Both the position numbers and the translations under genes were made by a program. Below the pieces are notes generated by a model. That model saw only the letters and a program-made list of their open reading frames with translations. It did no database searches and was not told where the DNA came from. A stretch of DNA of 64,000 nucleotides, taken from positions 114,737 through 178,736 of the forward strand of contig NZ_CP081154.1 of the NCBI RefSeq assembly GCF_025140835.1. Direction: 5' to 3'. This document shows positions 13,150-50,003 of this stretch, piece after piece; the stretch's first letter is position 1, and every line of letters begins with the position of its first letter. Origin of the DNA: Aliiroseovarius sp. M344. GTDB taxonomy: Bacteria; Pseudomonadota; Alphaproteobacteria; Rhodobacterales; Rhodobacteraceae.

Positions 13150-13163
13150 TTGATCTAAGTCAT
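13150..13163 (-). promoter_or_regulatory. FNR/NnrR-type box of the nos operon
   Basis: On the minus strand the bases read ATGAC-TTAG-ATCAA, against the FNR/NnrR/DNR consensus TTGAT-N4-ATCAA. One half-site is perfect and the other keeps 3 of 5. Its centre is 64 bp before the start codon of the first nos gene, the same spacing seen at nirS, norC, hemA and nnrS. Confidence 0.65.
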
Positions 13164-13767: not shown

Positions 13768-16700
13768 ATGAACGGTGTTTTTTGCGGTAATGGGACATTG
13801 CTTATCCAGTGCGCCGAAGCCTTTCTTGAAAAAGGTGGCCAGTGTGCCGGTATTATTTCTTCCGACACCCAGATTGCAGAATGGGCTAGATCCAAAGAAA
13901 TTCCCGTTTTGGGCACTCCTGAAGACCCTAAATTAGGTGGCATATCCGTTGATTGGCTTTTCAGTGTCGCCAATCTCAGCGTGTTGCCCGAAGAATTGGT
14001 CGCACAAGCCAAGACCGGCGCGATTAACTTCCACGACGGCCCGTTGCCAGACCTTGCCGGGCGCAACGTGCCGGTCTGGGCCATTCTGTCCGGTGCAGAA
14101 CAGCACGCGGTCACTTGGCACGAAATGACCATGCAGGTCGATGCGGGGGGTATTTACCGCACCAAGTCATTCCCCATTTCAGGCACAGAAACCGCGTTCA
14201 GCCTGAACGCCAAATGCTACGAGGTCGGGCTGGAAACATTCCGCGATCTGTTGGAAGATTTGTTTGCGGGCACACTGAATGCGACCCCTCAAAGCGGAAA
14301 GATGCTTTGGCACTCCAGTATCAAGCGTCCCGCCAATCTGGGGCTGTTGCGGTTTGATCAACCCGCCAAGTCATTGTCGGCAATCGTTCGCGGACTTGAT
14401 TTTGGCAATTATGCCAATCCCTTGGGAACCGCAAAGCTGTTGACCGGGCACACTCTGCTTGTTGTCGGAAACTTAAAGATCAGCGATGACCACGGGGGAA
14501 CACCGGGCGAAGTCATTTCTGTTGAGGACGACAGCATAGTCATTGCAGCAGCAGACGCGCATGTCGTTCTTTCTGATCTGAGCACTTTGACCGGCGATCC
14601 GGTGGACTTCGCGGCGTTGTCTCTTCAGGCAGGTGAAATTCTCCAAACCTCGACTGAGTTGGAGGCTGAACTTCTAAAGGCCGTGGGCCACAATGAAGCG
14701 CAATGGGAAGAAATCTGCTCGAAAGCCTTTCCTGCGGTCCCCCCATACCCGTTAGCTGCGGAAACACAGGAAGGTGTCGTTAGGGCCCCACTAGACTTAC
14801 CCGCCTGTTCAACAACGCACCTCAGTGCAGCATATCTGGCATGGATTTGTGCGTTATCCGGCAAATCCAGCGCCACATTTGCGCTGCGCGAACCGTCGCT
14901 TCATCCCGCGTTGTCTGACCGGCGCTTGGTCAGCATTGACCTGACGCCAGATGACACCGGATTAACCACAACCGCCAAATTCGATGCTGCTTTGGAAGAT
15001 GCGCGGGCCTTGGCGCCCATGGCTGCTGACCTTCCGCGGCGCCTAACCGATCCGAAACAGCGGGAAGCATCTCAGCTTGCCCTGTCTGTAATTTTCGCAT
15101 CCGAAGGCGCGGACGAAGAAGTTTTAACCGGTGGCACGTTCGCCCTGATCGCGGATAATCCTCGGTTCGTGGCGCGTGGCGTTGACGCAGATATCTTGAC
15201 CGTAATGGCCGGACATTTCAGCTTCTTTTTACGGAACTTTTTGGAAAACTCGTCGGCGCCGCTGACTGGTCTCGCCCTGACTGATCAGGACGAATTGCGC
15301 GACTCTGGAACCGGGGTCGATTTTGACCTCACCATACATGACGCTTTTGACCAGCAGGCGGAAAAGACGCCTGATGCGATTGCACTCGATGTAGGGGGCG
15401 TAACGCTCACGTATCAGGAATTGAAAGAACATGCGGATATTTTTGCCAGCGAGTTGATGCATCGAGGTGCTGAGTCCGGAAAAGTTGTCGGTCTCTGTAT
15501 TGAACGATCTGTCGATCTGGTTGTTGCTTTGCTTGCGATCCTCAAATCCGGGGCAGCTTACCTGCCACTGGACCCCGATTATCCAGCTGAACGCCTGTCT
15601 TTCATGATCGAGAATTCTGGCGCTTGTCTGGTGGTTGCCAGCACCAAAACGCAATCCCTTCTGGATGTTAAACCAAGCCAAATTGTCCTTCCCACCGCAG
15701 GCGCCGAAGCGGCACCGATGCCCAAAGTGTCGTCGGATGAACTTGCTTACCTGATCTACACGTCCGGTTCGACCGGCACTCCGAAAGGGGTTATGGTCCC
15801 GCACAGAGCGGTCCAGAACTTCTTTGCAGGGATGGATCAGAAGATCCCTTATGGTACGAGCTCTCGCTTTCTCGCCGTGACTTCGATCTCGTTCGACATC
15901 TCGGTTCTCGAACTTTTTTGGACCTTGACCCGCGGGCTGACGCTTGTGCTTCAGACCGATGGTCCGGCTAGTGCTGATCTGCCAGGGTTTTCGCTGTTTT
16001 ACTTTGCATCCGAAGTGGCTGGAACTGGGCATCATGCCTATCGCCTGTTGCTGGAAGGCGCGAAATTCGCAGACGAAAATGGCTTTGAAGCGATCTGGAC
16101 ACCCGAACGCCATTTTCATGCCTTTGGCGGATTGTACCCAAATCCCGCAATTAGTGCGGCCATGTTGGCCGGTATTACAAAGAACGTGAAGCTTCGGGCG
16201 GGATCGTCGGTTTTGCCGTTGCATCACCCCATTCGTGTGGCCGAAGATTGGGCGCTGGTTGACAACCTGTCAAACGGGCGCGCCGGCATCGCATTGGCGT
16301 CTGGCTGGCAACCAAACGACTTCGTCGTCCGGCCAGATGCTTTCGCGGACCGCAAGAACATCATGCTTGAAAACGTTGATACATTGCGATCGCTGTGGCG
16401 CGGTGAAAAACAGACGTTTGCCGGGCATGATGGCAAACCGGTAGACGTCGAGATCCACCCAAAACCGATGCAGGCTGATTTGCCGCTGTGGCTCACTGCG
16501 GCTGGCAATCCGGAAACCTTTGCTGCGGCAGCCCAAAAAGGCTGCGGGGTGTTGACTCACCTTCTGGGGCAAACGGTTGAGGAGGTATCTGAAAAGATCA
16601 AAGCCTACCGTGTAGCGTGGCGTGAGGCTGGCCACCCCGGGAATGGTACTGTCACCCTGATGCTTCATACATTCGTGGGTGACGACGAAGAAACCGTGCG

Positions 16701-18219
16701 CGAAACCGTGCGCGGTCCGATGAAAAGCTACCTTAAAAGCGCCGTAGATCTTGTGAAACGCGCTGCATGGACTTTCCCGACAATTGTTGAGCGCGCCAAC
16801 ACCGCAGGCATGTCACCGGTTGAAATGTTCGAACAAGAAGAGCTTTCACCGGAAGATCTGGATCAGCTGCTCGATCATGCATTCGAGCGGTACTACATGA
16901 CGTCAGGTTTGTTCGGCACAACCGAAAGCGCAAAAGACATCGTGCGTCAGGTGACGGCCATTGGCGTCGATGAGATCGGCTGTTTGATTGATTTCGGCGT
17001 TGATACAGATATCGCGCTTGAAAACCTGCCCAATATCAAAGCGCTCATGGACGCGCTGGAAGCCGAAGGCGGCGTTGGCAGAAAAGCCTCCGTTGCGGAA
17101 GAAATCGTGGAAAAAGATATCACGCATCTGCAATGTACGCCCTCAATGGCATCAATGCTGGCTGCGGACGAGCCGGGACAGCGTGCGCTTTCGCATCTTG
17201 ATGTGCTGATGGTCGGCGGAGAGGCCCTGCCTCTGGATCTGGCACGCGATTTACGATCTGCGACCGACGCAAGGTTTTTCAACATGTATGGCCCGACAGA
17301 GACAACGATTTGGTCCTCCTGTGCAGAGCTCAGCGAGATAGAGCATATTGTTCCCTTGGGCGAACCAATCGCCAACACTCGTTTGGACATACGTTCAACG
17401 CAGGGCCACAGTTTGCCCGAATTCGTTGCTGGCGAATTGTGGATTGGCGGGCAAGGTGTCACGAACGGATACTGGCAGCAGCCAGACCTGACCGCCGACA
17501 GGTTTGTCAAAACAGATGACGGCGTCTTCTATAAGACAGGCGATTTGGTTCGTCGCAGACCGGGCGGTGTCCTTGAATTTCTGGGTCGTATCGATAACCA
17601 GATCAAAATTCGCGGTCACAGGATAGAACTGGGCGAGATCGAATCCCAACTTCGTGCAGACCCGTCCATCGCTGAAGCCGTTGCCAAGGCGGTCGAGTTT
17701 TCGGCGGGCGACACTCGCCTTGTCGCCTACGTTACATCGTCCGGCACGCCACCATCAACCGAGCACCTCAAGCAGGCTTTGTCCTCCGTTTTGCCCGATT
17801 TCATGGTCCCGTCACAGTTTGTTGTCCTAGACAAGATACCGCTGACACCCAACGGCAAAGTCGACCGCAATGCGCTGCCTCATCCGGTCAGATCCAGGAC
17901 CGATCAACCCGCCGAAGCCCCTGATAATGAAACGGAAAACATCATCTATCAGGTGTGGCGCGATGCATTGGGGATCGACGATTTTTCGGTCAACAGCAAC
18001 TTCTTCGATCTGGGGGGACACTCACTGCTTGTCGTTCAGGTGCAGCGTGCTCTGAAGGGCAAGTTGGATCGGGCGATCTCGATCACCGATGTGTTCCGAT
18101 ATCCAACCGTCCGCAAGCTCAGCGAATTTATGAGCGGTGAAACCAAAACCGATCAGACTGCTGCTAATCGTGGTGCTGCACGCGCCGCCGCCCGCCTTGC
18201 ACGTATGGGCAGGCGCTGA
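13768..18219 (+). CDS. NRPS starter module: formyltransferase - degenerate C - A(Gly) with inserted LLM monooxygenase - PCP
   Basis: The protein has 1483 residues. Residues 1-290 form a methionyl-tRNA-formyltransferase-like domain with the catalytic triad in place: N87 and H89 in INFHDGPLP, and D125. Residues about 320-515 resemble a worn condensation domain with no HHxxxDG. The adenylation domain starts near 520, has core A3 YTSGSTGTPKG (about 664) and A4 FDISVLELF. It is then interrupted at 738-1100 by a luciferase-like flavin monooxygenase of the MupA/Atu3825 type, and resumes to A5 NMYGPTETT (1171) and A10 PNGKVDR. A PCP follows with Ser1419 in GGHSL. Reading the specificity residues by eye gives D-I-L-Q-M-G-M-I-W-K, close to the glycine code DILQLGLIWK. 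It starts after AAGGA and is followed by the PKS/NRPS gene after 39 bp. Confidence 0.9.
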   Translation: MNGVFCGNGTLLIQCAEAFLEKGGQCAGIISSDTQIAEWARSKEIPVLGTPEDPKLGGISVDWLFSVANLSVLPEELVAQAKTGAINFHDGPLPDLAGRNVPVWAILSGAEQHAVTWHEMTMQVDAGGIYRTKSFPISGTETAFSLNAKCYEVGLETFRDLLEDLFAGTLNATPQSGKMLWHSSIKRPANLGLLRFDQPAKSLSAIVRGLDFGNYANPLGTAKLLTGHTLLVVGNLKISDDHGGTPGEVISVEDDSIVIAAADAHVVLSDLSTLTGDPVDFAALSLQAGEILQTSTELEAELLKAVGHNEAQWEEICSKAFPAVPPYPLAAETQEGVVRAPLDLPACSTTHLSAAYLAWICALSGKSSATFALREPSLHPALSDRRLVSIDLTPDDTGLTTTAKFDAALEDARALAPMAADLPRRLTDPKQREASQLALSVIFASEGADEEVLTGGTFALIADNPRFVARGVDADILTVMAGHFSFFLRNFLENSSAPLTGLALTDQDELRDSGTGVDFDLTIHDAFDQQAEKTPDAIALDVGGVTLTYQELKEHADIFASELMHRGAESGKVVGLCIERSVDLVVALLAILKSGAAYLPLDPDYPAERLSFMIENSGACLVVASTKTQSLLDVKPSQIVLPTAGAEAAPMPKVSSDELAYLIYTSGSTGTPKGVMVPHRAVQNFFAGMDQKIPYGTSSRFLAVTSISFDISVLELFWTLTRGLTLVLQTDGPASADLPGFSLFYFASEVAGTGHHAYRLLLEGAKFADENGFEAIWTPERHFHAFGGLYPNPAISAAMLAGITKNVKLRAGSSVLPLHHPIRVAEDWALVDNLSNGRAGIALASGWQPNDFVVRPDAFADRKNIMLENVDTLRSLWRGEKQTFAGHDGKPVDVEIHPKPMQADLPLWLTAAGNPETFAAAAQKGCGVLTHLLGQTVEEVSEKIKAYRVAWREAGHPGNGTVTLMLHTFVGDDEETVRETVRGPMKSYLKSAVDLVKRAAWTFPTIVERANTAGMSPVEMFEQEELSPEDLDQLLDHAFERYYMTSGLFGTTESAKDIVRQVTAIGVDEIGCLIDFGVDTDIALENLPNIKALMDALEAEGGVGRKASVAEEIVEKDITHLQCTPSMASMLAADEPGQRALSHLDVLMVGGEALPLDLARDLRSATDARFFNMYGPTETTIWSSCAELSEIEHIVPLGEPIANTRLDIRSTQGHSLPEFVAGELWIGGQGVTNGYWQQPDLTADRFVKTDDGVFYKTGDLVRRRPGGVLEFLGRIDNQIKIRGHRIELGEIESQLRADPSIAEAVAKAVEFSAGDTRLVAYVTSSGTPPSTEHLKQALSSVLPDFMVPSQFVVLDKIPLTPNGKVDRNALPHPVRSRTDQPAEAPDNETENIIYQVWRDALGIDDFSVNSNFFDLGGHSLLVVQVQRALKGKLDRAISITDVFRYPTVRKLSEFMSGETKTDQTAANRGAARAAARLARMGRR

Positions 18220-18258
18220 GTTCATGATGCAAAACCGCCAAATATCGAGTATTCAGGC

Positions 18259-21200
18259 ATGACGCAGGAAAGCAAACCGGATAACCGCATCGCCATTGTG
18301 GGGCGTGCAGGTCGATTTCCCGCGTCGAGAAATGTTGAGGAATTCTGGGATTTAATTTCCAGCGGGCGGGTCGGGACTACAAAGCTGAGCGATCAGGCCT
18401 TGCTTGCCGCGGGCGTTAGTCGGGCAGCATTGGCGGACCCAAACTATGTCAAGGCGGCCAATATCCTGCCTGAGATGGAAAGTTTTGATGCTGGCTTCTT
18501 TGGGTTTTCACCGCGCGAAGCGGCGATCCTTGACCCCCAACACAGGCATTTTCTTGAAACCTGCTGGGAAGTTCTGGAAGACGCGGGCCATGTCCCGGAA
18601 AGCTTCGATGGTCGCATCGGGATATATGCGGGCTCAGGCATGCAGGCCTATTTGCCATACAACCTGCTTTCTAATCCCGACCTCGTGGAAGAGATCGGCT
18701 TGTTTCTGTTGCGCCATACCGGGAATGACAAGGATTTCCTGACAACCCGTGCGTCGTACATTCTGAACTTAACCGGTCCATCGGTGGCGGTTCAGACCGC
18801 GTGCTCGACATCACTTGTCGCGGTCCACATGGCTGTCAATGCGCTGCTGTCTTACGAGTGTGACATGGCCCTTGCCGGCGGTGTCACGATCGAGTTGCCA
18901 CACCGGGTTGGCTATAAATTCGCGAAAGGCGAAATCCTGTCACCAGATGGCTATTGCCGCGCATTTGACCAAGCCAGTGAAGGCACGGTTTTCGGTTCAG
19001 GGTCCGCGCTGGTGGCGCTGCGCCGGATGGAAGACGCATTGGCCGACGGTGATGACATCAAGGCCGTTATCCTTGGCTCGGCGATTAATAATGATGGGTC
19101 TTCGAAAGCAAATTATCTTGCGCCGTCTGTCGAAGGGCAGGCCGAGGCCGCAGGGGAAGCGGTAGCCATTGCACAGGTTGAACCGGAAACGATTTCATAC
19201 ATCGAAGCTCATGGCACAGGGACACCCATCGGTGACCCGATCGAGCTAGAGGCGCTCAACGACGTTTATGGCCCCGGCGACAAGTCATCGATTGATATCG
19301 GTTCTGTAAAATCCAACATTGGGCATCTGGACACCGCTGCGGGTGTCGCTGGCTTGATCAAGATCGTCGAAGCGATGCGCCACAGGTTCATCCCTGCAAC
19401 TGCCAATTTCTCGACACCCAACAGCCGGTTCGATTTTTCGTCCAGCCCGTTTCAGGTTTCTGGTGAAGGCAAGCCGTGGAGGTCCGAAGGGCGTCCAAGA
19501 CGGGCGGCAATCAACTCGCTTGGCGTTGGCGGGACTAACGCGCATGTAATCATAGAAGAGGCACCGGAACGGCCCGAAACACCGGCTGAAGACTGCTGGC
19601 GTGTATTTCCGTTTTCTGCCCGTGACGACGCGGCACTTGCGCGTGGAAACGAAAACTGGGCGTCCTTTCTTGAACAAAGCGATACCAGGATGGGTGATGT
19701 CGCTCATACATTGATAAATGGGCGACGTGCATTTCCAGCCAGAATGGCCATTGCTGCCAGAACCAAGGACGATCTTCTCGCAGCCCTGACTGGTGCTGCC
19801 CCTGCCCTGTTGCAAGCTGGTAAATCCGACAGCAACTCTGCCGCTTCCATTGTGTTCATGTATCCGGGCGGCGGCGCGCAATATCCCGGCGCGGGCGCCG
19901 AGATGCTGCAGCAGTCACCCGTTTTCAAGGCTGCCGTTGACGAGTGTTTTTCACTGCTGCCTGCAAGCGCGCCGGACGATCTGTACGAAGTGATGTTCTT
20001 GCGCACACTTGCCGATGACGATGCGCGCGACAAGCTCAGCACGAAATCCGCCTATGCGATCCCGGCCCTGACCATTCTTGGTTATGCATACACCAAGCAG
20101 TTGGAAAGCTGGGGTATTAAACCAGACAGCATCGTCGCGCACTCGGCCGGGGAATACGCAGGGGCCGTCGTATCCGGAGCCATGTCTCTGCGCGATGCGC
20201 TTCGGGTTGTGACGTTGCGGGGGCAGGTTATGGATGACGCGCCCAAAGGCGCGATGACCACCATCCCCGCCGATGAAGCCACTGTTCGAAAACTGGTCGG
20301 TGACAATCTGGACATTGCCGCCCTGAATGCGCCTGAAGTCAGTGTCATTTCAGGCCATATGGACGAGATCGCAGCGCTGGAAAAACAACTCTGCGAAACG
20401 GAACACGCTGCCCGCAGGATACCGCTGGACGTCGCTGCGCACAGCCGCTTGCTGGACGGGCAACTTGACCGGTTCCGCAAAGGGTTCGAAGGCATCAAAT
20501 TCGGCACTCCGACACTTCCGATGGTATCTGCCTTGCGCGGCGGTTGGGGCATCGATGATGATTTCCTCTCGGCCGAATATTGGGTCAGACACTTACGCAA
20601 CACGGTGCGGTTCGCAGACGCGATATCATGTGTATTGGAGAAACCGGACCAGATAATCATTGATATGGGTCCCTCGCAGTCATTGCTTCCGTTGGTCCAG
20701 ATGATTCCGGGAGCAAATCCTCCGCGCGGACTGATCCCCTGCGCGCCAAAGCCTAAGGACGAGACCAGCGAAATTGGCGTGTCGGTCGCTGCCCTTGGCG
20801 GGCTATGGGCAAATGGTGTCGACTTAGATTGGCAACGGCTGCCCGGACAGACCGGGCGCAAAATCTCGTTGCCCACTTATCCGTTCGATAAAACCAAACA
20901 CTGGATTGAACCCGGAATACAAACAGCGGCCAAACCCATCGAAGAGGAACTGCCCAGCCTGCACCGCCGCGAAGATATCGATACATGGTTGGAAACTACG
21001 GCTTGGGTCGAAGAAAAGCCCGCTGGTTCCGCGCCCGAGATTTCTGGTTCATGGGTGATTTTTGCCAACCAGAACCCGTTCGCAAACGACGTCCTGGCGA
21101 CGCTCCAGAAATCATCCCGGGCGCAAGTGACCGTTGTTCGCGCGGGCGATGCCTATCGCCAATCCGGTAACGAATTTGAGATCCGCACAGACGTTGCAGA

Positions 21201-24200
21201 AGATTTCGAGAAACTTCTCGAGGCCTTGGGTGATGGAAGCAAAACGATGTTGCAGTTGTGGCCGTTAGAGACAACGGACACCGCAGCGCCCTTTGACCAT
21301 GCCTATCTCTTGTTGCGTGCCATGCAGCTCAATGGCATCGGACCAAACTCAAAGCTGGCTTTTGTTGTGCCAGTCGCGCCAGATGCACAGAACCTGGTCT
21401 CGATCTCACCAGATATGCAGTCGCTGATTGGGCCGGTACGTGTGGCCCCTCGCGAAATTCCGGGGCTGGAAGCTGCACTGATCGGGATCGAAACCACATC
21501 CGCGCGCGCTCAGGACGTTATTGCGGAAGCAGCCAGCGCGGATGCGGCAGACGAACTTGCTTATCTGAATCAGAAACGTCTGATCCCTCAAAGATCGCCC
21601 TCGTCAATCGCAGCATCCAAAGATCTGCCCGGTCGGTTGAAGCGCGGCGGCGTTTATGTCGTAACCGGCGGTCTGGGCGGCATCGGGCGCGAACTGGCGC
21701 TTTGGTTGGCGAAAACAACTCATGCCAAGATCGCGATGATGTCCCGGTCGGCACAGGAAGATCATGCGCTGACCGAGGCAATCAGAAAACTTGGTGGCGA
21801 TGTTGCTTATTTCGCTGTTGATGTGACTGACAGAGCCGCTTTGACAGACGCAATTGAACAGACCAAGGCCAAATTTGGCACCATCAATGGTGTGATACAC
21901 GCGGCTGGTGCGATCGCCGACGCGCCCTTCTCGGTCAAATCATTGGACGAGGCGCATACCATCATGGCGCCGAAGATCATCGGCGCGCAACATCTTGCAG
22001 AGCTTTTGCCGGATGGCTCGATTGACCTTTTTGCGGTGTTCTCATCTTCATCCGTAGTCATCGGTCCCGCAGGTCAAAGCGATTACATCGCCGCCAATGC
22101 TTATCTTGAAGCACTGGCCGCCGAACGGTCTGATGGGCTTTCCATTGCATGGAGCATCTGGCGCGACATTGGCATGGCGGCTGAAACTTATGGTGTCGGC
22201 CCCAAATCGGACAGCCCATACGCACTTCTTGGATCGCGACAGCTGGATGAGAATGGCGCTGTGGTTTATTCTGGGCGTCTGGACCCCATGGATGACTGGG
22301 TTATCGCAGAACATATTGTCGGCGATACTCCGGTCCTGCCCGGCACCGCTTATCTTGAAATAGCAGCCGAGGCGGCGAAAGATCAGTTCGGTTCGGTGGA
22401 ATTCGAAATTCAATCCTTGTCGCTTGCGGCGCCAATGGTCTTCACTGACAGTGCTGCACGAAATGTTGATGTGCACCTGACTCCGTCTGACGAGGGATTT
22501 GACCTGAGGATCACAAGTTCAGCGGGCACCGACAAGCCGCCCGTCGAACACGCCAATGCCCGGATCGAGCCACGTCAGAAAGGGTCGCCCACGCCGGGCT
22601 TGCCCGACTTTGTTGCCCCAGAAACACTCGCGCCACGAAGTGGCCAGACGCCACAAGAGGTGCTGATTGACTTCGGGCCGCGCTGGAACAACATCGGCGA
22701 AATCCGAATTGATCAGAAGTATGCAGAGGGTCAGTTTACCCTTCCAGACGCCTTTCTGTCTGATCTGGAAACTGGGATTCATCTTCACCCCGCGCTTGTC
22801 GATATGGCAATGACGGTGGGGCTGCATTTGATTGATGCAAGCGAGATGGAAGGCAACGTGTATGTTCCCATCTCGTTCGAACATGTGTCGGTCCTTGCGC
22901 CTGTGCCAGCCAAGATCATTTCACGCGCGGTGCGCCGTAACACGGCGAAGAAAAGCATCGCAGCCTTCGATGTGGAAATTCGTGATGGGTCCGGTGCTTT
23001 GGTTGTCGTGATCGAAAACCTCGTGCTTCGCGCTGTTGCCGGAGGCAACTTGCGACCCGGTCAAGAAGCCACAAGCCTGACTGAAAAAATGTTGGCGACA
23101 GGAATTCGCCGTCGCGACGCGGACGAAGTATTTACCCGTGTTTTCAACATTATGGGGAAGAACGTCACGGTAGCCCCGGTCCCCCTGGAACAAATTCGCC
23201 TTGCGATGGCAGAAGTTCCGAAATCCCAATCAGAGGACGAAGGCGCGGGTGCGGAAGTGGCCATCTCGGATCCGTTGGCGGCCGCCCTAGCCAGTGAATG
23301 GCAGCAGCTTCTGGGCGTAAATTCCATTGGGCCGGATGACGATTTCTTTGCGCTCGGCGGCCATTCGTTGAACGCTGTGCGATTGTTCAATCGTATCCGC
23401 AAGTCCTTCGGCGTCGATATGCCGCTTGCCCAGCTTTATGAATCCCCAACCGTATCCGCGCTGGCGGACGCGATGCGATCGCGCGGCTATGTTGATGAGA
23501 CCGCGCCCGCCGAAACGCCGGATACGGCCAGCCCCGGAACGAACGAGACGCCACAGGCGCGCAGCAGCGAGCTGACTGAAGGACAGCGGGAAGTTTTCTC
23601 GGCCATCCTTAGCAACCCAAGTGCGAACCTAGCTTACAACCTGTCCTGCAGCCTTCATATCGACGGGGATATCAACGCCGATGCGATGACGCAGGCGCTT
23701 CAACGTGTCGGACAACGGCATGACAGCCTTAGGGCGACCTTCGACCCCCACAGCTTGCAAATGACGATTTCTCCCGATGTGGCATTCGCACTTGAAACCG
23801 CCGATCTGCAGGATGCGGCACCGGTACAGCAATCTGACGCGCGCGCATCAATACACCACGATGTGGCATCGACAGAATTTGATCTGGAACATGGTCCGAT
23901 GCTGCGGGCGCGTCTTCTGACCTATGCCCCTGCGCGGCACGAATTGCTGATAGGGCTGCACCACATGATCTGCGATGGCTGGTCCATTGGTGTTATCATG
24001 CGGGACTTATCAGAAATCTATAATTCGATTGTCGAAGCCCGCGACGCCAAGCTTCCACCGATCGAAAGCATTGTGGATTTCGTCGCCGAGGAAAAGGACT
24101 GGTTGGTCACCGACAGGGCGACGGAGCATCGTGACTACTGGCTCGATCGCTTTTCGGGCGATGTCCCTGTTATGGATCTTCCTACGGATCGACCACGCCC

Positions 24201-27200
24201 CCCCGTCAGAACCAGTTCGGCTGAACGTATCGACACCGCCCTAAGCGCGTCCCTTGATAAGCGTCTGCGGGACATGGCGAAGGCAACCGGCTCGTCACTT
24301 GAAAATGTCGTCTTTGCCGCGTTCCAGTTGTTCCTTTCGCATCTGACCGGTTCGCGCGATATCGTTGTTGGGCTGCCGGCCGCCGGCCAGCTGTCCTTCG
24401 GGTCAGAGAATACGGTTGGGCATTGTGTGAACTTCCTGCCCATACGGTCTTCGGTGCAACCCGAAGAGAGCTTTGCTGACCTGATTGCACAGGTGAAGCG
24501 CAATCTTTTGTCGGCGCTTGATCATCAAAATTATACTTATGGGTCATTGATGCGCGACCTTGGCATTCCGCGCGACCCATCGCGTCTGGCGCTGGTGCCC
24601 ATCATCGTCAATATCGACAACCTGTCCGAGATTGACGCCCTGCCCTACAGCGGGCTTTCGACCGAGTTCAAAGTGAATCCGACCGGTAACGAGTTGTTCG
24701 AGATCTTCTTCAATCTGCTGGATGCCCCCAGTGGAGCAAAGCTTTACTGGAGCTATAACACCGACCTTTTCAATGCGGACACGATCCAGCGATACCTGAA
24801 CCAGTTCCTGTCGCTGCTTGAAGGTCTCACGGCTGATCCGAATGTCAAAATCGGCAAAACGAGTGCGTTATTGTCCGGTTCCATCCAGCCTAGCAGCGGA
24901 ACCTTTGAGGATCCGGGCGCTCTTGGGCCTCAAACCATTACCGAGGTTTTTGCAGCCACCGTTGAAAAGCACGCAAACAGGATTGCTGTCCGTCAAGGCG
25001 ACGCAACGATGGAGTACCAGACGTTGGACGCCCGATCCGATGCGCTGGCAAAATGGCTTGTCGATCTGGGCGTGCAGCGCGGGCAGCTGGTTGGGATATC
25101 ATCCAGAAGATCGGTTGATCTGATTGTCGCGGTTATGGGCGTCCTGAAATCCGGTGCTGGCTACGTCCCATTTGATACCGCCCTGCCCGCTGACCGCCTA
25201 CGTTTCATGGCGGAAGATACCGGCATCGGGGTGCTGATTGGCACGTGCGATCCTGTTGCAGACACCGGCGTGAAAACGATTTCTCTGACTGATCTGGACC
25301 TTGATGCAAAGGAGGCACCCAAGCCGGACCTGACAGGTGAAGACATCGCTTATGTGATGTTTACTTCCGGCACCACCGGTACACCCAAAGGGGTCGTATT
25401 GCCCCATCGCACAGTTATCAGAATGCTGTGTGATACCGATTGGCTGAAGATGGGTCCGGAAACAGTGACGCTTCATTCCTCGGCATTTGCTTTTGATACC
25501 TCGATCATCGATATATTCGCAGCGCTTTTGCACGGCGGCACCGTCGTCATTCCGCCAGATGGAACATTATCCATTTCCGATCTGGCGACCGCCGTGGCCA
25601 GCCATGATGTCAACACGCTTTGGCTGACATCCGGTCTTTTTCATGCCGTTGCAGACACCAATCCCCTGACTTTCGAAAAAGTAGATCAGGTGATCGTTGG
25701 CGGTGACGTCGTATCGCCCCCTCACGTGAAAAAGGTCATGGATGCGTGTCCTAATATAACCGTGATAAACGGATATGGCCCAACAGAAAGCAATGTCACC
25801 AACGCCCATCCCATTACCTACGAAGACACGGTCTCTGGCAAATCTCTTCCCATCGGACAAGCCATCCCCGGCACGCAGATCTTTATCGTCGACGAAGCGA
25901 TGAACCCTGTGCCTGCTGGCATTCAGGGGGAACTGTGCATCGCGGGTCGCGGTCTGGCACTGGGATATTGGAACCGCCCGGACCTGACGGCCGAAAAGTT
26001 TGTTGCGGCGCCATGGGATCCCGACTTGCGGCTGTATCTCTCTGGTGATCTGGCTATGGACCCCGGCGATGGGTCTTTGCGCTTCTATGGCCGCAAGGAC
26101 ACGCAGGTCAAAGTCAGAGGGTTCCGCGTAGAACCGCTTGAGATTGAGAGCGTGCTTGAAGATCATCCTATGGTGAAACAGGTTGTCGTCGTCGCCGTGG
26201 TCCCTGAAGGGCAAACTGACAAGGTGCTTGCAGCCTTCATTGTGCCGGAAGACAAAACGCCGTCGCGCCGCATTCTGGCGGAACACGTCAAGACACGCAT
26301 CCCGGAATATGCCCGCCCGAGTTTCTATGTTCCGGTATCCGAACTTCCCTTGAACCAGAACGGCAAAGTGGATCGCAAAGCCCTGCCACCCCTTTCGGAC
26401 GCCATGGAGATGGGGGACTATCTGGAACCGCAGAATGCAACAGAACGCCGACTTGCTGAGATGTGGAGCGACGTTCTGAAACTGGACACCATAAGCGCCG
26501 AGGCAAACTTCTTTGATCTAGGGGGGCACTCTTTGCTCGCCGTGCGCTTGTTTGACAAGATCAGGGCAGAGTTCTCGCTCGACCTTCCGATCTCGACCCT
26601 GTTTCAAAATCCCAGCATCCGTGATCTGGCCGGAGTGATAGATGAGGGGCAAGCAGATTCAACCCTCGCCTTGACCGAGGATGCCAAAGACCTTGACTGG
26701 GACACCTCGACCGTGATCCACCCCGGTCCCGGCACCGGGAACAGGCCGCTCTTTATCGTAGGCGGGGTCGGAGGCAACCTTAACAACCTGGCGGATCTGG
26801 CCCGCAGTCTGGGCAAAACCTGCCCCGTTATCGGGTTTCAAACACGGGGCATCCTTGGTCACACCCCACGCAACAGCATCGAGGAAATGGCCGCCGACAA
26901 CATAACCTATTTGAAGGCACACCAACCAAACGGTCCTTATGTCCTTTCCGGATATTCAGGCGGGGCATTCACAGCCTTTGAAATGGCGCGCCAATTGCAG
27001 GCACAGGGCGACGTCGTTGATGTTTTCTTTGTTCTGGACACATTTGCTCCAGGATTTGTGGCCGATTTCGGAACGAATGCCTCATTGCCGTTAAGAAAAC
27101 GTGTTGAGCACGAAGTGGCATTGATGCGTGACAGCGGATTGTCAAATCTGAAAAAGCGGTCGCGCAGTTTCTTCAAGAACCTGGTCTATCGGGGTCCTGC

Positions 27201-27507
27201 ATTAAAACTGCTACAGCATTATAATCCATCTTATCATCGCTACAGGATCATGAAGATGGCTTGGATCGACGCGGCACGCCATTACGAAGGCGGCCAATTC
27301 GACGGTGATGTCTTGTTGTTCAAAAGCAACCCGACCTCGGTGCGCGAACTCTTGGTACGGGAAAAATCTGACACCTATGGTTGGGAGAAATGGGTGCCGG
27401 AACGCCGCATTCAGACGCTTCATGTCGAAGGCGATCACCGATCAATGGTCACCGGTAAAAACGGGGCGGCTTTGGCCCAGTACATCGTGAAACGACTGAT
27501 TAACTGA
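18259..27507 (+). CDS. Hybrid PKS/NRPS: KS-AT-KR-DH-ACP-C-A-PCP-TE
   Basis: The 3082-residue megasynthase contains, in order: KS (8-430; C182 in TACSTS, H318, H356); AT (530-850; S629 in AHSAGE, with VAAHS at 725-729 where HAFH or YASH is usual, so extender choice is open); KR (905-1330; GGLGGIG at 1137, Y1276, N1280); DH (1335-1625; H1352 in HIVGDTPVLP, D1515); ACP (S1703); C (1775-2215; HHMICDG from 1901); A (2226-2710; FTSGTTGTPKG, NGYGPTES); PCP (S2758); TE (S2900 in GYSGG). All active-site residues I could check are present. The A-domain code reads roughly D-T-I-W-I-G-G-V-T-K and matches none I remember. KR lies before DH, the reverse of ordinary cis-AT modules. No phosphopantetheinyl transferase or exporter gene lies nearby. 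Confidence 0.93.
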   Translation: MTQESKPDNRIAIVGRAGRFPASRNVEEFWDLISSGRVGTTKLSDQALLAAGVSRAALADPNYVKAANILPEMESFDAGFFGFSPREAAILDPQHRHFLETCWEVLEDAGHVPESFDGRIGIYAGSGMQAYLPYNLLSNPDLVEEIGLFLLRHTGNDKDFLTTRASYILNLTGPSVAVQTACSTSLVAVHMAVNALLSYECDMALAGGVTIELPHRVGYKFAKGEILSPDGYCRAFDQASEGTVFGSGSALVALRRMEDALADGDDIKAVILGSAINNDGSSKANYLAPSVEGQAEAAGEAVAIAQVEPETISYIEAHGTGTPIGDPIELEALNDVYGPGDKSSIDIGSVKSNIGHLDTAAGVAGLIKIVEAMRHRFIPATANFSTPNSRFDFSSSPFQVSGEGKPWRSEGRPRRAAINSLGVGGTNAHVIIEEAPERPETPAEDCWRVFPFSARDDAALARGNENWASFLEQSDTRMGDVAHTLINGRRAFPARMAIAARTKDDLLAALTGAAPALLQAGKSDSNSAASIVFMYPGGGAQYPGAGAEMLQQSPVFKAAVDECFSLLPASAPDDLYEVMFLRTLADDDARDKLSTKSAYAIPALTILGYAYTKQLESWGIKPDSIVAHSAGEYAGAVVSGAMSLRDALRVVTLRGQVMDDAPKGAMTTIPADEATVRKLVGDNLDIAALNAPEVSVISGHMDEIAALEKQLCETEHAARRIPLDVAAHSRLLDGQLDRFRKGFEGIKFGTPTLPMVSALRGGWGIDDDFLSAEYWVRHLRNTVRFADAISCVLEKPDQIIIDMGPSQSLLPLVQMIPGANPPRGLIPCAPKPKDETSEIGVSVAALGGLWANGVDLDWQRLPGQTGRKISLPTYPFDKTKHWIEPGIQTAAKPIEEELPSLHRREDIDTWLETTAWVEEKPAGSAPEISGSWVIFANQNPFANDVLATLQKSSRAQVTVVRAGDAYRQSGNEFEIRTDVAEDFEKLLEALGDGSKTMLQLWPLETTDTAAPFDHAYLLLRAMQLNGIGPNSKLAFVVPVAPDAQNLVSISPDMQSLIGPVRVAPREIPGLEAALIGIETTSARAQDVIAEAASADAADELAYLNQKRLIPQRSPSSIAASKDLPGRLKRGGVYVVTGGLGGIGRELALWLAKTTHAKIAMMSRSAQEDHALTEAIRKLGGDVAYFAVDVTDRAALTDAIEQTKAKFGTINGVIHAAGAIADAPFSVKSLDEAHTIMAPKIIGAQHLAELLPDGSIDLFAVFSSSSVVIGPAGQSDYIAANAYLEALAAERSDGLSIAWSIWRDIGMAAETYGVGPKSDSPYALLGSRQLDENGAVVYSGRLDPMDDWVIAEHIVGDTPVLPGTAYLEIAAEAAKDQFGSVEFEIQSLSLAAPMVFTDSAARNVDVHLTPSDEGFDLRITSSAGTDKPPVEHANARIEPRQKGSPTPGLPDFVAPETLAPRSGQTPQEVLIDFGPRWNNIGEIRIDQKYAEGQFTLPDAFLSDLETGIHLHPALVDMAMTVGLHLIDASEMEGNVYVPISFEHVSVLAPVPAKIISRAVRRNTAKKSIAAFDVEIRDGSGALVVVIENLVLRAVAGGNLRPGQEATSLTEKMLATGIRRRDADEVFTRVFNIMGKNVTVAPVPLEQIRLAMAEVPKSQSEDEGAGAEVAISDPLAAALASEWQQLLGVNSIGPDDDFFALGGHSLNAVRLFNRIRKSFGVDMPLAQLYESPTVSALADAMRSRGYVDETAPAETPDTASPGTNETPQARSSELTEGQREVFSAILSNPSANLAYNLSCSLHIDGDINADAMTQALQRVGQRHDSLRATFDPHSLQMTISPDVAFALETADLQDAAPVQQSDARASIHHDVASTEFDLEHGPMLRARLLTYAPARHELLIGLHHMICDGWSIGVIMRDLSEIYNSIVEARDAKLPPIESIVDFVAEEKDWLVTDRATEHRDYWLDRFSGDVPVMDLPTDRPRPPVRTSSAERIDTALSASLDKRLRDMAKATGSSLENVVFAAFQLFLSHLTGSRDIVVGLPAAGQLSFGSENTVGHCVNFLPIRSSVQPEESFADLIAQVKRNLLSALDHQNYTYGSLMRDLGIPRDPSRLALVPIIVNIDNLSEIDALPYSGLSTEFKVNPTGNELFEIFFNLLDAPSGAKLYWSYNTDLFNADTIQRYLNQFLSLLEGLTADPNVKIGKTSALLSGSIQPSSGTFEDPGALGPQTITEVFAATVEKHANRIAVRQGDATMEYQTLDARSDALAKWLVDLGVQRGQLVGISSRRSVDLIVAVMGVLKSGAGYVPFDTALPADRLRFMAEDTGIGVLIGTCDPVADTGVKTISLTDLDLDAKEAPKPDLTGEDIAYVMFTSGTTGTPKGVVLPHRTVIRMLCDTDWLKMGPETVTLHSSAFAFDTSIIDIFAALLHGGTVVIPPDGTLSISDLATAVASHDVNTLWLTSGLFHAVADTNPLTFEKVDQVIVGGDVVSPPHVKKVMDACPNITVINGYGPTESNVTNAHPITYEDTVSGKSLPIGQAIPGTQIFIVDEAMNPVPAGIQGELCIAGRGLALGYWNRPDLTAEKFVAAPWDPDLRLYLSGDLAMDPGDGSLRFYGRKDTQVKVRGFRVEPLEIESVLEDHPMVKQVVVVAVVPEGQTDKVLAAFIVPEDKTPSRRILAEHVKTRIPEYARPSFYVPVSELPLNQNGKVDRKALPPLSDAMEMGDYLEPQNATERRLAEMWSDVLKLDTISAEANFFDLGGHSLLAVRLFDKIRAEFSLDLPISTLFQNPSIRDLAGVIDEGQADSTLALTEDAKDLDWDTSTVIHPGPGTGNRPLFIVGGVGGNLNNLADLARSLGKTCPVIGFQTRGILGHTPRNSIEEMAADNITYLKAHQPNGPYVLSGYSGGAFTAFEMARQLQAQGDVVDVFFVLDTFAPGFVADFGTNASLPLRKRVEHEVALMRDSGLSNLKKRSRSFFKNLVYRGPALKLLQHYNPSYHRYRIMKMAWIDAARHYEGGQFDGDVLLFKSNPTSVRELLVREKSDTYGWEKWVPERRIQTLHVEGDHRSMVTGKNGAALAQYIVKRLIN

Positions 27508-27561: not shown

Positions 27562-28380
27562 TCATTCCGCTGACGGTATCACATCTTCAATGAATTCAGA
27601 CATTAGATCAATCAAGCCGTGTTTTGCTAAATCGGCATGCCCGCCATCAGGGAACACGACAATCCGTTTTGGATCCGGGGCGATCTCGGCCAACTGGACT
27701 GCCCACTCAAAAGGCAGAGATTTGTCTTTTGCACCATGTACAAACAGCTTTGGGGCCGTCACGCGGTCAATCAGGTCGACGGTATCGTAGCGCTCGGACC
27801 ACATAAGGTAGCAAAAGGGAAAACCACGGTAGCGTTTGGTATAGTACCTGCACGCACGCGGCATTGAAGCCTCCAGTATAACCGCGCCGAACTCACGCTC
27901 AGATGCCAGCCGCGCGCCCACGGCCGAACCTAGGCTCAAACCATGTAATATACGTCGTTCAGATGGCACAACGCGCCCGATCAGGGTGTCCATTTGATCG
28001 TAAAGCGCCCGTGCGTCCATGGCGAACCCTCGCTCCGACGATCGGTTCTTGTCGCCACTTGCCCCCCGGTATTGCATGACCACAATACCATAGCCTTTGG
28101 CCATCAAGGGTTTGAACCGCTCCATCGAACCGCCGATCTTTGCCGCATTGCCGTAAAACGACAAAATGGTCGGCGCGCCTTCATCTGGTGAAGACACCCA
28201 AACCTGAATGCGCGCGCCGTCTTCTGAAATGAGTTCTTTCACGACAACTTCCGACAGGCCGTAAGCTGCAGGCGTTTCTTCGGTTTTCGGGAACTCGTAA
28301 ATACCCCAGCGCTGGAAGGCCCAGATGGAAAAAACCAAGCCAGAAACCAGAAGTATTGCAAGCCAATGCCACCCGCTCAT
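27562..28380 (-). CDS. Membrane-anchored alpha/beta hydrolase (BEM46/YfhR-like)
   Basis: The 272-residue protein has one N-terminal TM segment (WLAILLVSGLVFSIWAF) followed by an alpha/beta-hydrolase fold. The nucleophile elbow is GLSLG, a later Asp lies in LFVHGAKDKSLP, and the His is in DGGHADL. This makes it a serine hydrolase facing the periplasm; the substrate is unknown. I use ATG 28380 (AGGA 8 bp upstream); the frame stays open further upstream. It converges on the PKS/NRPS gene 54 bp away and could in principle act on that product, but nothing in the sequence proves it. Confidence 0.8.
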   Translation of the reverse strand: MSGWHWLAILLVSGLVFSIWAFQRWGIYEFPKTEETPAAYGLSEVVVKELISEDGARIQVWVSSPDEGAPTILSFYGNAAKIGGSMERFKPLMAKGYGIVVMQYRGASGDKNRSSERGFAMDARALYDQMDTLIGRVVPSERRILHGLSLGSAVGARLASEREFGAVILEASMPRACRYYTKRYRGFPFCYLMWSERYDTVDLIDRVTAPKLFVHGAKDKSLPFEWAVQLAEIAPDPKRIVVFPDGGHADLAKHGLIDLMSEFIEDVIPSAE

Positions 28381-28747
28381 GTCATGTATCCTGTCGTCAT
28401 TCAAATATCGTCCCAGTTGTTTGATCGCGAAACGCCGTGGCTGTGGCAACTGTAACAGACAGTTCGAATTGGCGCACAATCCATTGATAAAATAGTGCGA
28501 AACTACAGTCCATCCTGGCCATGCACACGCTTTTTCAGGATTAAAATCCCTTGGTCATTGTTTCGTCAAAGCCAACAATCACGCCAAACTGGTTGCAGTG
28601 TCTAAATTTCGGAAATTCCACCACAAATTTGCCCCCTTTCCGACAAATTCTGGCTGACAAGCACGCAATTTAATGCTAAAATCGCTTAGTAGTAATAAAT
28701 TTTTTATGCGTATCAATTGATTAGTCTTTATTGGGAAGGGCGAGGAT
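28381..28747. other. AT-rich intergenic region upstream of the VPLPA-CTERM gene
   Basis: No gene is seen. The stretch is clearly AT-richer than its neighbours, especially 28640-28730, and contains the perfect 10-bp palindrome ATCAATTGAT (28712-28721) 27 bp before the start of the next gene, a possible operator. It lies between divergent genes and must hold promoters for both. Confidence 0.5.
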
Positions 28748-29316
28748 ATGAAGAAATTACTGGCGACAACAGCCGTAGCAACAATGGTTGCAACTGCTGC
28801 GACAGCCGCAACCACCGTTGATTTGACCACAGGGGGTGATGTCACCGCGCTTGGCAGCTTGGGTTCGTTCTCATCTGGCACGTGTCGGGTTCAATCGACC
28901 CATGGCGCTACGGGTGGTCAACTGACTACCTGACACAGACTTCAGGCGGCCTTGGTGTAACCGGCTTCCTGGATACTTCGGCACAGCTGGATGGGTTAGT
29001 TGATGAGGCTATCACGTTTACATTCGACAAGTCAGTTCGCCTGATGTCCGTCACCTATTCGTATTTTGGGTGGGGCGACGACGCTGATGTTTATGTGAAT
29101 GGCGCAATGGTTGCGAACGAGAGCACCGCGAACCCGTATCTGTTCGGGAACACTATCGCCAGCTCTTTCACTATTGGTGCTGATGGTTGGAATGACAACT
29201 TCCGCATCAAATCGTTCACGGTTGCAGCCGTTCCCGTTCCCGCAGCAGGGTTTTTGCTGCTGGGCGGCCTTGCCGGGCTTGGTCTGGTTGGTCGGAAGCG
29301 GAAAAAAGCTGCTTGA
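28748..29316 (+). pseudogene. VPLPA-CTERM exosortase substrate interrupted by a frameshift
   Basis: The first frame starts with MKKLLATTAVATMVATAATA, a clear signal peptide, but stops at 28933. The second frame (from about 28882) has no start of its own and runs to 29316. It ends with VPVPAAGFLLLGGLAGLGL followed by RKRKK, which is the VPLPA-CTERM sorting signal: motif, TM helix and basic tail. The two halves fit as one about 185-residue secreted protein broken by a one-base shift near 28878-28895. A missing base around ACGTGTCGG would explain it. It may be a true pseudogene, phase variation or a sequencing error. The exosortase for this tail type is encoded at 32174. Confidence 0.8.
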
Positions 29317-32043: not shown

Positions 32044-32173
32044 TGCTTGGTTATTTCTCTGTTTTTGCAGTTTCCAATGGGCGATGCCCTGAAAATGCGA
32101 GATAAATAGGTTATTGTTACGCGGATTCCATTTGCGACCATTGTTTGCAAACTTCAATGAAGAGACAGATTGT

Positions 32174-33775
32174 ATGTCCATAACGAGTGATAAGCCAGAA
32201 AAGCGACTGTCCGCCCTGCCCCAAATGAATGTGGTTGGGTTGTTCTGGTTCGCGATTCTGATCCTTGGATCACTTCCCGTTTTCTGGATCGGCTTCAAAT
32301 CACTGGCCGACGCGTGGACCACACCGGAATACAGCCACGGACCACTGATTCCCATAATCTCGCTTTACCTGTTTCTGCGCGAACTGCGCAAAGCCCCACC
32401 GCCGAAACTCACGGTTACCGATCGCGGACCTGGAATTGCTGTGATCGTGATCGGGTTGGCCATCGCCATTCTTGGAAACTTAACCCGAATTCCCGACATC
32501 GTGACCTATGCGATGATCATCTGGCTTGGTGGGGTGGTTTTGGTTGTGTTCGGATGGGAACGCGGCAAACGGCACCAGTTGCCGGTCCTGCATTTGATCT
32601 TCATGCTGCCGCTGCCTCAGTTCCTGTACTGGAAACTGACCATCCTGCTCCAATACCTCTCGTCCGCTCTGGGTGTCTGGTTCGTCAGCTTGGCTGGGGT
32701 CTCTGTTTTTCTGGAAGGTAATATTATTGACCTTGGGGTTTATAAGCTTCAGGTCGCGGAAGCCTGCTCGGGCTTGCGATACCTGTTTCCGATCCTCAGT
32801 TTCTCGTACCTGTTTGCAATTCTTTATCGTGGCCCGGTCTGGCACAAAGCCGTGCTTCTTCTTTCCGCAGCGCCGCTGACGGTATTCATGAACTCTGTTC
32901 GCATTGGGATCATCGGCATTCTGGTTGACCGTTACGGTATCGAGCAAGCAGAAGGTTTCCTGCACTTTTTTGAAGGCTGGGTGATCTTTGTTATCTGCAT
33001 TCTGATCCTGTTTATTCTGGCGGTCGCGCTACAACGCCTAAGCCGCGACCCTAAGCCGCTGAGTGAAGCGATCGACTTGGATACGCAGGGCTTCGGAGGC
33101 ATTGCAGCCCGGATTTTCAACATTCAGGCGTCAAAAGCGCTCACTGCCGCCGCATTCATCACCGTTGCCACCTCGGCGATCTGGTTCAACTTGCAGGGCG
33201 GGGAAACCGTCAAAGTCGAACGCGCGCCGTTTTCACTTTTCCCAAAGCAGATTGAAGAATGGAAAGGGGCATCTTCTCGACTTGATGCCAAGGTCGAAAA
33301 GGTACTTGGGGCCACAGACTATCTTCAGACGACTTACGCGGCTGCCGGACAGCCCAGCTTCGTCAATCTGTTCATCGCTTATTACGACAAGCAAACCGAA
33401 GGGTCCGGCATACATTCACCCGAGGTTTGCCTGCCGGTGGGGGGTTGGGAAGTTTTCAGCCTGGAACCCTATAAGATTGACCCGAAAGTTCCGGAATATG
33501 GCACATTCGACGTCAATCGCGCCGTCATTCAAAAAGGACTAAGCAAACAGCTGGTTTATTACTGGTTTGAACAGCGCGGCAAGCGGCAGACCAATGATTT
33601 CGCCGCAAAGATCGGCGTTGTCATCGACAGCATCACCATCGGTCGGACGGATGGCGCTCTGGTTCGGTATGTCACTCCGATCCTGCCGGATGAGACGGAT
33701 GCCGACGCCGACGCACGTCTGGTCAACTTCATTTCGATGAGCTTGCCGCGCCTGCCACGCTTTGTCCCGATGTAG
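32174..33775 (+). CDS. xrtD: VPLPA-CTERM-specific exosortase XrtD fused to EpsI (DUF3485)
   Basis: The 533-residue protein has a membrane N-terminal part (residues about 20-300, eight or more TM segments) with the exosortase catalytic residues: Cys198 in EACSGLRYL, Arg in NSVRIGIIG, and His in HFFEGW. Its C-terminal part (about 330-533) is an EpsI/DUF3485 domain with the characteristic [15 protein letters not shown] segment. Exosortases cleave and process proteins with C-terminal sorting tails in the inner membrane, tied to exopolysaccharide production. I chose ATG 32174 because the protein then opens with an ordinary cytoplasmic tail before TM1; the frame is open upstream. Confidence 0.92.
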
Positions 33776-49928: not shown

Positions 49929-50003
49929 TACAGGACTCCTGTCATGTTCTTCAGTCAGCATATCGTATCCGGGTGGCGGGGGGCTTGATCATGATCAAGC
50001 GCG

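What the first reader, a model, noticed from the sequence alone, without database searches (positions are those of the whole stretch)
13768..27507. Two-gene hybrid NRPS/PKS of unusual architecture lodged between the nos and nir operons
Seen: FT-(degenerate C)-A(monooxygenase)-PCP followed by KS-AT-KR-DH-ACP-C-A-PCP-TE, with all key catalytic residues I checked in place. Known: each domain family is well described. Inference: a small formylated glycine-derived starter, extended by one reduced and dehydrated ketide unit and one amino acid, then released by the TE. I know no product matching this. No transporter, phosphopantetheinyl transferase or regulator lies beside it, so the compound may act inside the cell or use housekeeping functions. 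Its position inside a denitrification region raises the question of co-regulation.
Basis: partly seen in the sequence, partly recalled or inferred. Interest (0 to 1): 0.78.

Follow-up and report, generated by a model that had tools for sequence, protein, structure and literature searches.

The report
Formylating NRPS/PKS pair, exopolysaccharide-linked family
Two giant enzymes that should stitch formylated glycine to a two-carbon unit and one amino acid belong to a family that, in most of its relatives in the same bacterial family, sits inside gene clusters for surface sugars rather than next to denitrification genes, so the product may be a chemical decoration of a cell-surface polysaccharide.

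Summary
The two genes are real and read as described: FT, half a condensation domain, glycine-type A domain with an inserted flavin monooxygenase, PCP; then KS-AT-KR-DH-ACP-C-A-PCP-TE. The denitrification setting looks accidental: no NosZ, NosR or NirS in 165 other fetched loci. Nor is the pair rare: 106 of 295 genomes of the same family hold protein 1. In 77 loci not used for training, 72 have Wzx/Wzy/Wzz-like or sugar-transferase genes nearby and 68 a glycosyltransferase between PKS and NRPS; a flippase lies within 25 kb in 32 of 40 genomes, 0.7 expected. The window's version has one extra C-A-PCP module, probably gained once. It adjoins an exosortase mini-locus, on a contig that also carries an exopolysaccharide cluster, a PPTase and a third megasynthase. 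My reading: an assembly line for a small acyl substituent of a surface polysaccharide. Against it: window-type pairs in rhizobia and Phenylobacterium, and the sister Sneathiella pair, lack such neighbours. Product and attachment are unproven.

The parts
13768..18219 (+). P0001: FT (1-285) - C-terminal lobe of a condensation domain (about 286-520) - A domain (521-740 and 1107-1375, code DILQMGMIW, Gly-type) with inserted TIGR04020 flavin monooxygenase (741-1093) - PCP (about 1390-1457)
18259..27507 (+). P0002: KS (9-384) - AT (532-805) - KR (1131-1303) - DH (1323-1597) - ACP (1676-1738) - C (1788-2204, HHMICDG at 1901) - A (2231-2703, code DTIWIGGVT) - PCP (LGGHS at 2754) - TE (2829-3076)
27562..28479 (-). 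alpha/beta hydrolase, convergent with P0002; found after the PKS gene in all 7 window-type relatives fetched and in the Sneathiella relative whose downstream side was fetched
28882..29316 (+). small protein ending in a PEP-CTERM/VPLPA-type sorting signal (VPVPAAGFLLLGGLAGLGLVGRKRKKAA); start of the exosortase mini-locus (probable association)
   Evidence: motif read by eye
29504..31951 (+). TPR protein resembling XrtA-system PrsT (TIGR02917, 175 bits, below its cut-off of 312)
   Evidence: 42% identical homologue in the G144 exopolysaccharide/exosortase contig
32114..33775 (+). exosortase XrtD (TIGR04152, 688 bits, cut-off 400)

Best explanation
The pair is a carrier-protein assembly line that makes a small N-formylated aminoacyl-ketide acid, used as an acyl substituent of a cell-surface polysaccharide. 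Steps: A1 loads glycine on PCP1; FT formylates the amine; the inserted flavin monooxygenase may oxidise the carrier-bound unit; KS-AT add one C2 unit; KR and DH reduce and dehydrate it (4-formamidobutenoyl type); in the window's version a second module adds one amino acid by C-A-PCP; TE releases or transfers the chain. Shown here: the domains, their motifs, family membership, and the exopolysaccharide context of the family in the window's bacterial family. Inferred: every chemical step, glycine as substrate (from a recalled code), and above all attachment to a polysaccharide.
For: Family context: in 77 loci of the window's bacterial family not used to build the profiles, a GT2 gene lies between PKS and NRPS on the same strand in 68, a PPTase is next downstream in 64, and at least one Wzx/Wzy/Wzz/sugar-transferase gene is present in 72. 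Flippase (PF13440, E<=1e-20) within 25 kb in 32 of 40 genomes, 0.68 expected. Annotated records agree: Ruegeria conchae has xrtD, rfbABCD, sugar transferase, PKS, GT2, NRPS, PPTase and flippase within 45 kb; Aminobacter MSH1 has O-antigen ligase, polysaccharide export and flippase. The 4 Hyphomonas-type loci have a flippase directly upstream. In the window's genome the only flippase found (E<=1e-20) is on the same contig, in a cluster with Wzy-like, FemAB-like, GT2, sugar transferase and Wzz-like genes that lies next to a third megasynthase and a PPTase. PrsT-like TPR and XrtD lie 2-5 kb downstream of the window pair.
Against: The window-type pair in 4 rhizobial-type and 2 Phenylobacterium genomes has no exopolysaccharide gene by my profiles within about 20 kb (downstream side only for one of them); the same holds for the sister Sneathiella (G299) and a Comamonadaceae MAG (G303). 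The 4 rhizobial-type genomes have no exosortase at all. In the window genome the flippase is 78 kb from the pair, and the pair has no GT2 or PPTase of its own. XrtD and protein 1 co-occur in 15 of 295 genomes, fewer than the 25 expected. No enzyme that would attach the product was identified; the FemAB-like protein on the contig is only a candidate. Several EPS families (Wzy-, Wzz-, kinase-like) rest on Pfam/NCBIfam scores below the curated cut-off.
Confidence: 0.5

Rival explanations
1. A free, diffusible small metabolite (formylated aminoacyl-ketide amide) released by the TE and handled by the conserved alpha/beta hydrolase; the exopolysaccharide neighbourhood of other members is a separate recruitment.
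For: In rhizobia and Phenylobacterium the hydrolase is the only neighbour I found conserved with the window-type pair. Window-type proteins form one clade (support 0.974) that probably gained C-A-PCP once, so their product differs from that of the exopolysaccharide group. The sister Sneathiella pair also lacks exopolysaccharide neighbours. G144 has an MFS transporter about 10 kb downstream.
Against: The family's Rhodobacteraceae members, Aminobacter and Hyphomonas are beside flippases or glycosyltransferases. No nearby exporter was found in the window (10 ORFs scanned). Conservation of exporters or regulators beside window-type pairs was not tested; by eye a sensor-kinase/response-regulator pair follows the hydrolase in R. 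subbaraonis.
Confidence: 0.3
2. A siderophore or other metallophore.
For: Small hybrid NRPS/PKS; TIGR04020 is named after MupA and Atu3671, and Atu3671 lies in a siderophore cluster (recalled).
Against: The window genome has no TonB-dependent receptor (PF00593) at E<=1e-10, while the other 9 genomes searched each have at least one. No siderophore-type enzyme was among the 10 neighbouring ORFs scanned.
Confidence: 0.05
3. The metabolite serves or is co-regulated with denitrification.
For: Position between nos and nir; one FNR-like match with 2 mismatches at 13150.
Against: 0 of 165 fetched loci hold NosZ, NosR or NirS; FNR-like matches in the window are near chance (31 against 24); that match lies on the nos side about 600 bases from the NRPS start.
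Confidence: 0.04
4. The genes make a lipid or acyl anchor or carrier for the polysaccharide, or a glycosylated small molecule, rather than a repeat-unit substituent.
For: PKS-like proteins RkpA and WcbR in capsule clusters have been proposed to make lipid parts (recalled); in group B a glycosyltransferase gene lies between PKS and NRPS.
Against: One ketide extension on a glycine starter is very short for a membrane anchor (inference). Wzx/Wzy/Wzz-like and sugar-transferase genes point to a polymer.
Confidence: 0.11

Closest known systems
Group B NRPS/PKS pair of Rhodobacteraceae (seen here in Ruegeria conchae; probably Roseibaca domitiana BMJDCPAI_00765/00767)
   Same: Homologous FT-A(monooxygenase)-PCP and KS-AT-KR-DH-ACP-TE proteins. 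R. domitiana's pair has matching gene sizes and one gene between (PMC10584327, passages). Phaeobacter inhibens T5 lists a PKS and an NRPS two tags apart (Inhi_1972, Inhi_1974; PMC4062626, passages), but the tags it gives for strain DSM 17395 are not neighbours. I fetched neither locus, so both are inferences.
   Different: No C-A-PCP module; PKS of about 2070-2190 aa. The passages I read treat them as unknown secondary metabolite clusters, and 'polysaccharide' does not occur in the held text of PMC10584327.
Linear gramicidin synthetase LgrA (FT-A-PCP starter)
   Same: FT-A-PCP initiation module; best PDB match of P0001.
   Different: No inserted monooxygenase; followed by NRPS modules, not a PKS (recalled).
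TIGR04020 MupA/Atu3671 monooxygenases, PuwE structure 6ket
   Same: Domain 741-1093 scores 490 bits (cut-off 244); 6ket PuwE is the best solved match to this domain in the listing.
   Different: Here embedded inside the A domain of a formylating glycine-type loading module.
RkpA/WcbR-type PKS in capsule clusters (recalled)
   Same: A PKS serving a surface polysaccharide locus.
   Different: No NRPS loading module, no FT (recalled); no sequence comparison was made here.
Exosortase A-associated EPS loci with acyl-CoA ligase, decarboxylase, FemAB and hydrolases (recalled)
   Same: Acyl or aminoacyl activation genes within an exosortase-linked polysaccharide locus; FemAB-like and hydrolase genes are also present on this contig.
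   Different: Full NRPS/PKS assembly line instead of a single ligase.

Membership tests
FT-A-PCP formylating initiation module | Formyltransferase domain with Asn-His-Asp triad before an A domain | tested here: met
   Pfam FT N and C domains; N 91/91, H 88/91, D 91/91 in relatives; triad recalled
FT-A-PCP formylating initiation module | Glycine-activating A domain | tested here: inconclusive
   Code DILQMGMIW close to the recalled Gly code DILQLGLIWK; D-I-L-Q in 91/91; substrate not assayed
MupA/Atu3671 (TIGR04020) monooxygenase | Score above the curated NCBIfam cut-off | tested here: met
   489.9 bits, cut-off 244.45
Exopolysaccharide-embedded NRPS/PKS family (group B type context) | GT2 between PKS and NRPS, PPTase downstream, Wzx/Wzy/Wzz in the same cluster | tested here: not met
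   Window pair is adjacent, without GT2 or PPTase; the EPS cluster lies 68-87 kb away on the same contig. It is a relative by sequence and phylogeny, not by layout.
XrtD/VPLPA-CTERM system | XrtD above cut-off with a sorting-signal protein nearby | tested here: met
   688 bits; C-terminal signal at 28882-29316 read by eye. That the NRPS/PKS pair belongs to this system is not shown.
Siderophore cluster | TonB-dependent receptor in the genome | tested here: not met
   0 matches to PF00593 at E<=1e-10 in G000
Characterised MIBiG cluster with same order | Same domain order and a known product | not testable with these tools
   MIBiG is not held; PMC10584327 reports low MIBiG similarity for the R. 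domitiana hybrid (passages)

The most novel reading that the evidence does not exclude
A modular NRPS-PKS assembly line, present in about a third of the sampled genera of the window's family (Rhodobacteraceae), is a dedicated part of exopolysaccharide biosynthesis. It makes a formylated glycine-ketide substituent that is put on the polymer. The window's lineage has extended the substituent by one amino acid, and in this organism the genes sit next to an exosortase locus of the same surface programme.
Probability: 0.4. Interest if true: 0.82.

Novelty: new variant of a known kind. Interest (0 to 1): 0.58.

Why it matters
A genome-mining paper logs hybrid clusters of apparently this sort as unknown, possibly drug-like, metabolites (PMC10584327, passages). 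If they serve polysaccharide decoration, about a third of Rhodobacteraceae genera, many of them marine surface colonisers (recalled), use assembly-line chemistry on their outer sugars. That could explain why no free product is known, and gives a testable link between 'secondary metabolism' and biofilm or attachment.

Tried and rejected
Exosortase dependence: proposed after seeing XrtD next door. It was weakened by 15 co-occurrences against 25 expected (counted by eye) and by 4 rhizobial-type genomes without exosortase. Physical linkage when both occur is still notable: 3 of 15 within 20 kb (window, G126, G276) and 4 of 15 within 35 kb (also G294), plus Ruegeria conchae.

Siderophore: judged unlikely for the window genome. 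Denitrification link: judged unlikely.

Paper searches for the NRPS/PKS and EPS link or its parts and for VPLPA-CTERM listed no paper whose title or shown abstract describes it. Several of these lists were capped, so this is a statement about the listings only. I read passages of four papers (PMC4062626, PMC8739492, PMC12144821, PMC10584327) and no whole text.

Untested: AT extender specificity, DH activity (the HxxxG motif is altered to H-I-V-G-D), the A2 substrate, and the roles of families F11 and F17.

Method limits: ORFs were taken mechanically. In GC-rich genomes antisense ORFs displaced some true genes in the synteny tables, so counts come, which used stop-to-stop frames and profiles. 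Profile families were trained on the 37 contexts and tested on 77 other loci. Of the 111 places listed, one is the window, 20 were fetched (training), 77, and 13 fragmentary ones were not fetched. Eight of the 77 are shorter than 20 kb because the contig ends. Five of the 77 have no core EPS gene and are kept in n. The 40 genomes were picked by me from the 106 and include the window's own and 15 training genomes.

Full report
What is there. Two genes on the plus strand, 13768-18219 and 18259-27507, encode proteins of 1483 and 3082 residues. In the first protein the A domain is cut between its early and late halves (527-736 and from 1109) by a TIGR04020 flavin monooxygenase. The stretch between FT and A (286-520) averages only 19.5% identity to 90 relatives, against 39-55% for the other domains. 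It matches no Pfam family in the window protein. Its model, built from 15 sequences, has pLDDT 87, and Foldseek places it on condensation domains. There is no HHxxxDG in the protein. I conclude that only the C-terminal lobe of a condensation domain remains. It may act as a spacer, or as a platform for the KS; this is inference.

Are the enzymes competent? Across 91 full-length relatives the FT triad is kept (N 91, H 88, D 91) and the nine code letters of the A domain begin D-I-L-Q in all 91, close to the glycine code I recall. In 109 PKS rows the KS Cys/His/His are kept in 108; these rows include the third megasynthase of the window genome and that of G144, which are paralogues. The DH histidine (107) and aspartate (107) are kept, although the HxxxG motif is altered. 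In 7 of 7 window-type proteins the second A domain reads DTIW[VI]GGVT (the G144 protein is split over two loci and was not scored). The nearest code I recall is valine's, 5 of 9 letters, so this is a weak lead.

How common is it? A homologue of protein 1 at E<=1e-100 occurs in 106 of 295 genomes of the window's family, each of another genus. At the stricter E<=1e-280 it occurs in 7 of 385 genomes drawn from the class, 5 of them in that family and one of those the window's own. I take the family to be Rhodobacteraceae because the named Ruegeria conchae locus falls inside its clade.

Two architectures. Most relatives have a PKS of about 2070-2190 residues that ends KS-AT-KR-DH-ACP-TE ('group B'; TE read from the C-terminal sequences of five of them). 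The window, genome G144, four rhizobial-type genomes (one is Mycoplana) and two Phenylobacterium have about 3080 residues with C-A-PCP before the TE ('group A'). A midpoint-rooted FastTree phylogeny of protein 1 without the spacer makes group A one clade (support 0.974), with Sneathiella (group B architecture) next to it and Hyphomonas outside that. The extra module was therefore probably gained once.

The neighbourhood of the family. In group B loci of the window's family the two genes usually sit in exopolysaccharide clusters. Representatives were identified by Pfam and NCBIfam, some below curated cut-offs, and their families turned into profiles, which I applied to 77 loci not used in training. 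PKS and NRPS lie on one strand in 73 of 77; a GT2 lies between them in 68; a PPTase is next in 64; at least one Wzx/Wzy/Wzz/sugar-transferase gene is present in 72 of 77, and in 66 of the 69 loci with a full 20 kb. Four of 77 loci show no exopolysaccharide family at all, one of them only 6.9 kb long. As a control independent of my profiles, PF13440 flippases were located in 40 of the 106 genomes: 59 in all, within 25 kb of protein 1 in 32 genomes, where 0.68 is expected from genome size. Two named records tell the same story.

The window itself. Downstream lie a convergent alpha/beta hydrolase, a small protein with a PEP-CTERM/VPLPA-type tail, a PrsT-like TPR protein and XrtD, and then a cytochrome d1 (NirS-like) gene. 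On the same contig, 68-87 kb upstream, is an exopolysaccharide cluster (Wzy-like, FemAB-like, GT2, DegT aminotransferase, flippase, sugar transferase, Wzz-like). About 57-68 kb upstream, next to that cluster, are a 3440-residue megasynthase with two A domains, KS-AT, an aminotransferase domain and C-A-PCP-TE, and a PPTase. In G144 the homologue of that megasynthase (54.8%) ends about 2.6 kb before its copies of the window pair, with a PPTase match between. The PrsT-like and XrtD genes of G144 lie on a contig with its flippase, Wzz-like and sugar-transferase genes. I take the three megasynthases, the PPTase and the exosortase/exopolysaccharide genes to be parts of one surface programme; this is inference.

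What speaks against this. In four rhizobial-type and two Phenylobacterium genomes the hydrolase is the only neighbour I found conserved with the group A pair; my profiles find no exopolysaccharide gene within about 20 kb on either side (downstream only for L015), and none beside the Sneathiella (G299) or Comamonadaceae (G303) pairs either. The four rhizobial-type genomes have no exosortase. In Phenylobacterium and Sneathiella the exosortase lies about 3 kb from a flippase but 160-530 kb from protein 1. XrtD and protein 1 co-occur less often than chance would give (15 against 25), although they are sometimes closely linked when they do. G144 has an MFS transporter about 10 kb downstream. The window-type product could therefore be a free metabolite.

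The denitrification setting. NosZ, NosR and NirS are absent (tblastn E<=1e-20) from all 165 loci fetched from L015 on. Six of these are other pieces of the window's own contig, some hold only flanks or partner regions, and the 20-kb loci reach only about 4-5 kb beyond the pair. The shared intergenic stretch holds one FNR-like match with two mismatches at 13150, on the nos side, and matches in the window are near chance (31 against 24). I regard the position as a local accident of this replicon.

Literature. Genome papers mention hybrid NRPS/PKS genes in this group as unknown clusters: Phaeobacter inhibens (PMC4062626, passages) and Roseibaca domitiana, with a hybrid NRPS-like/T1PKS in 18 of 37 species (PMC10584327, passages). 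That the R. domitiana pair is this family I infer from gene sizes and spacing only; for the other species and for Phaeobacter it is a guess. In the palmerolide paper (PMC8739492, passages) a luciferase-like monooxygenase is linked to an alpha-hydroxylation, which is the chemistry I would test first. The ichizinone paper (PMC12144821, one passage) only lists such an enzyme in a gene table.

Noticed in passing
window 28882-29316: Small protein with a PEP-CTERM/VPLPA-type C-terminus, then a PrsT-like TPR protein and XrtD: a compact exosortase locus between the PKS gene and the NirS-like gene.
   Followed up: partly
L075:931-11966 (same contig, about 57-68 kb upstream of the pair): Third megasynthase of 3440 residues with KS-AT, class III aminotransferase and C-A-PCP-TE, directly followed by a PPTase; its homologue lies close to the window-type pair in G144.
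   Followed up: partly
whole genome G000: No TonB-dependent receptor (PF00593) at E<=1e-10; the other 9 genomes searched, 8 of them reached through loci of other groups, each have one or more.
   Followed up: no
window 49985-49998: Perfect FNR-type palindrome TTGATCATGATCAA, the only perfect match in the window.
   Followed up: no
G126 (C6 and C47): Two copies of protein 1 in one genome; the C47 copy lies about 19 kb from the genome's only XrtD match.
   Followed up: no
L033:10827-15212: 1461-residue protein near the G144 pair with only a weak C-terminal match to cobalamin-independent methionine synthase.
   Followed up: no
L024:6319-9363: Large ORF (1014 aa) upstream of the Mycoplana pair with a DctP solute-binding domain only at its C-terminal end; possibly a start-site artefact of the mechanical ORF call.
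   Followed up: no
L075:13775-14620: Integrase-core (rve) transposase gene shortly after the PPTase, suggesting mobility of this part of the replicon.
   Followed up: no
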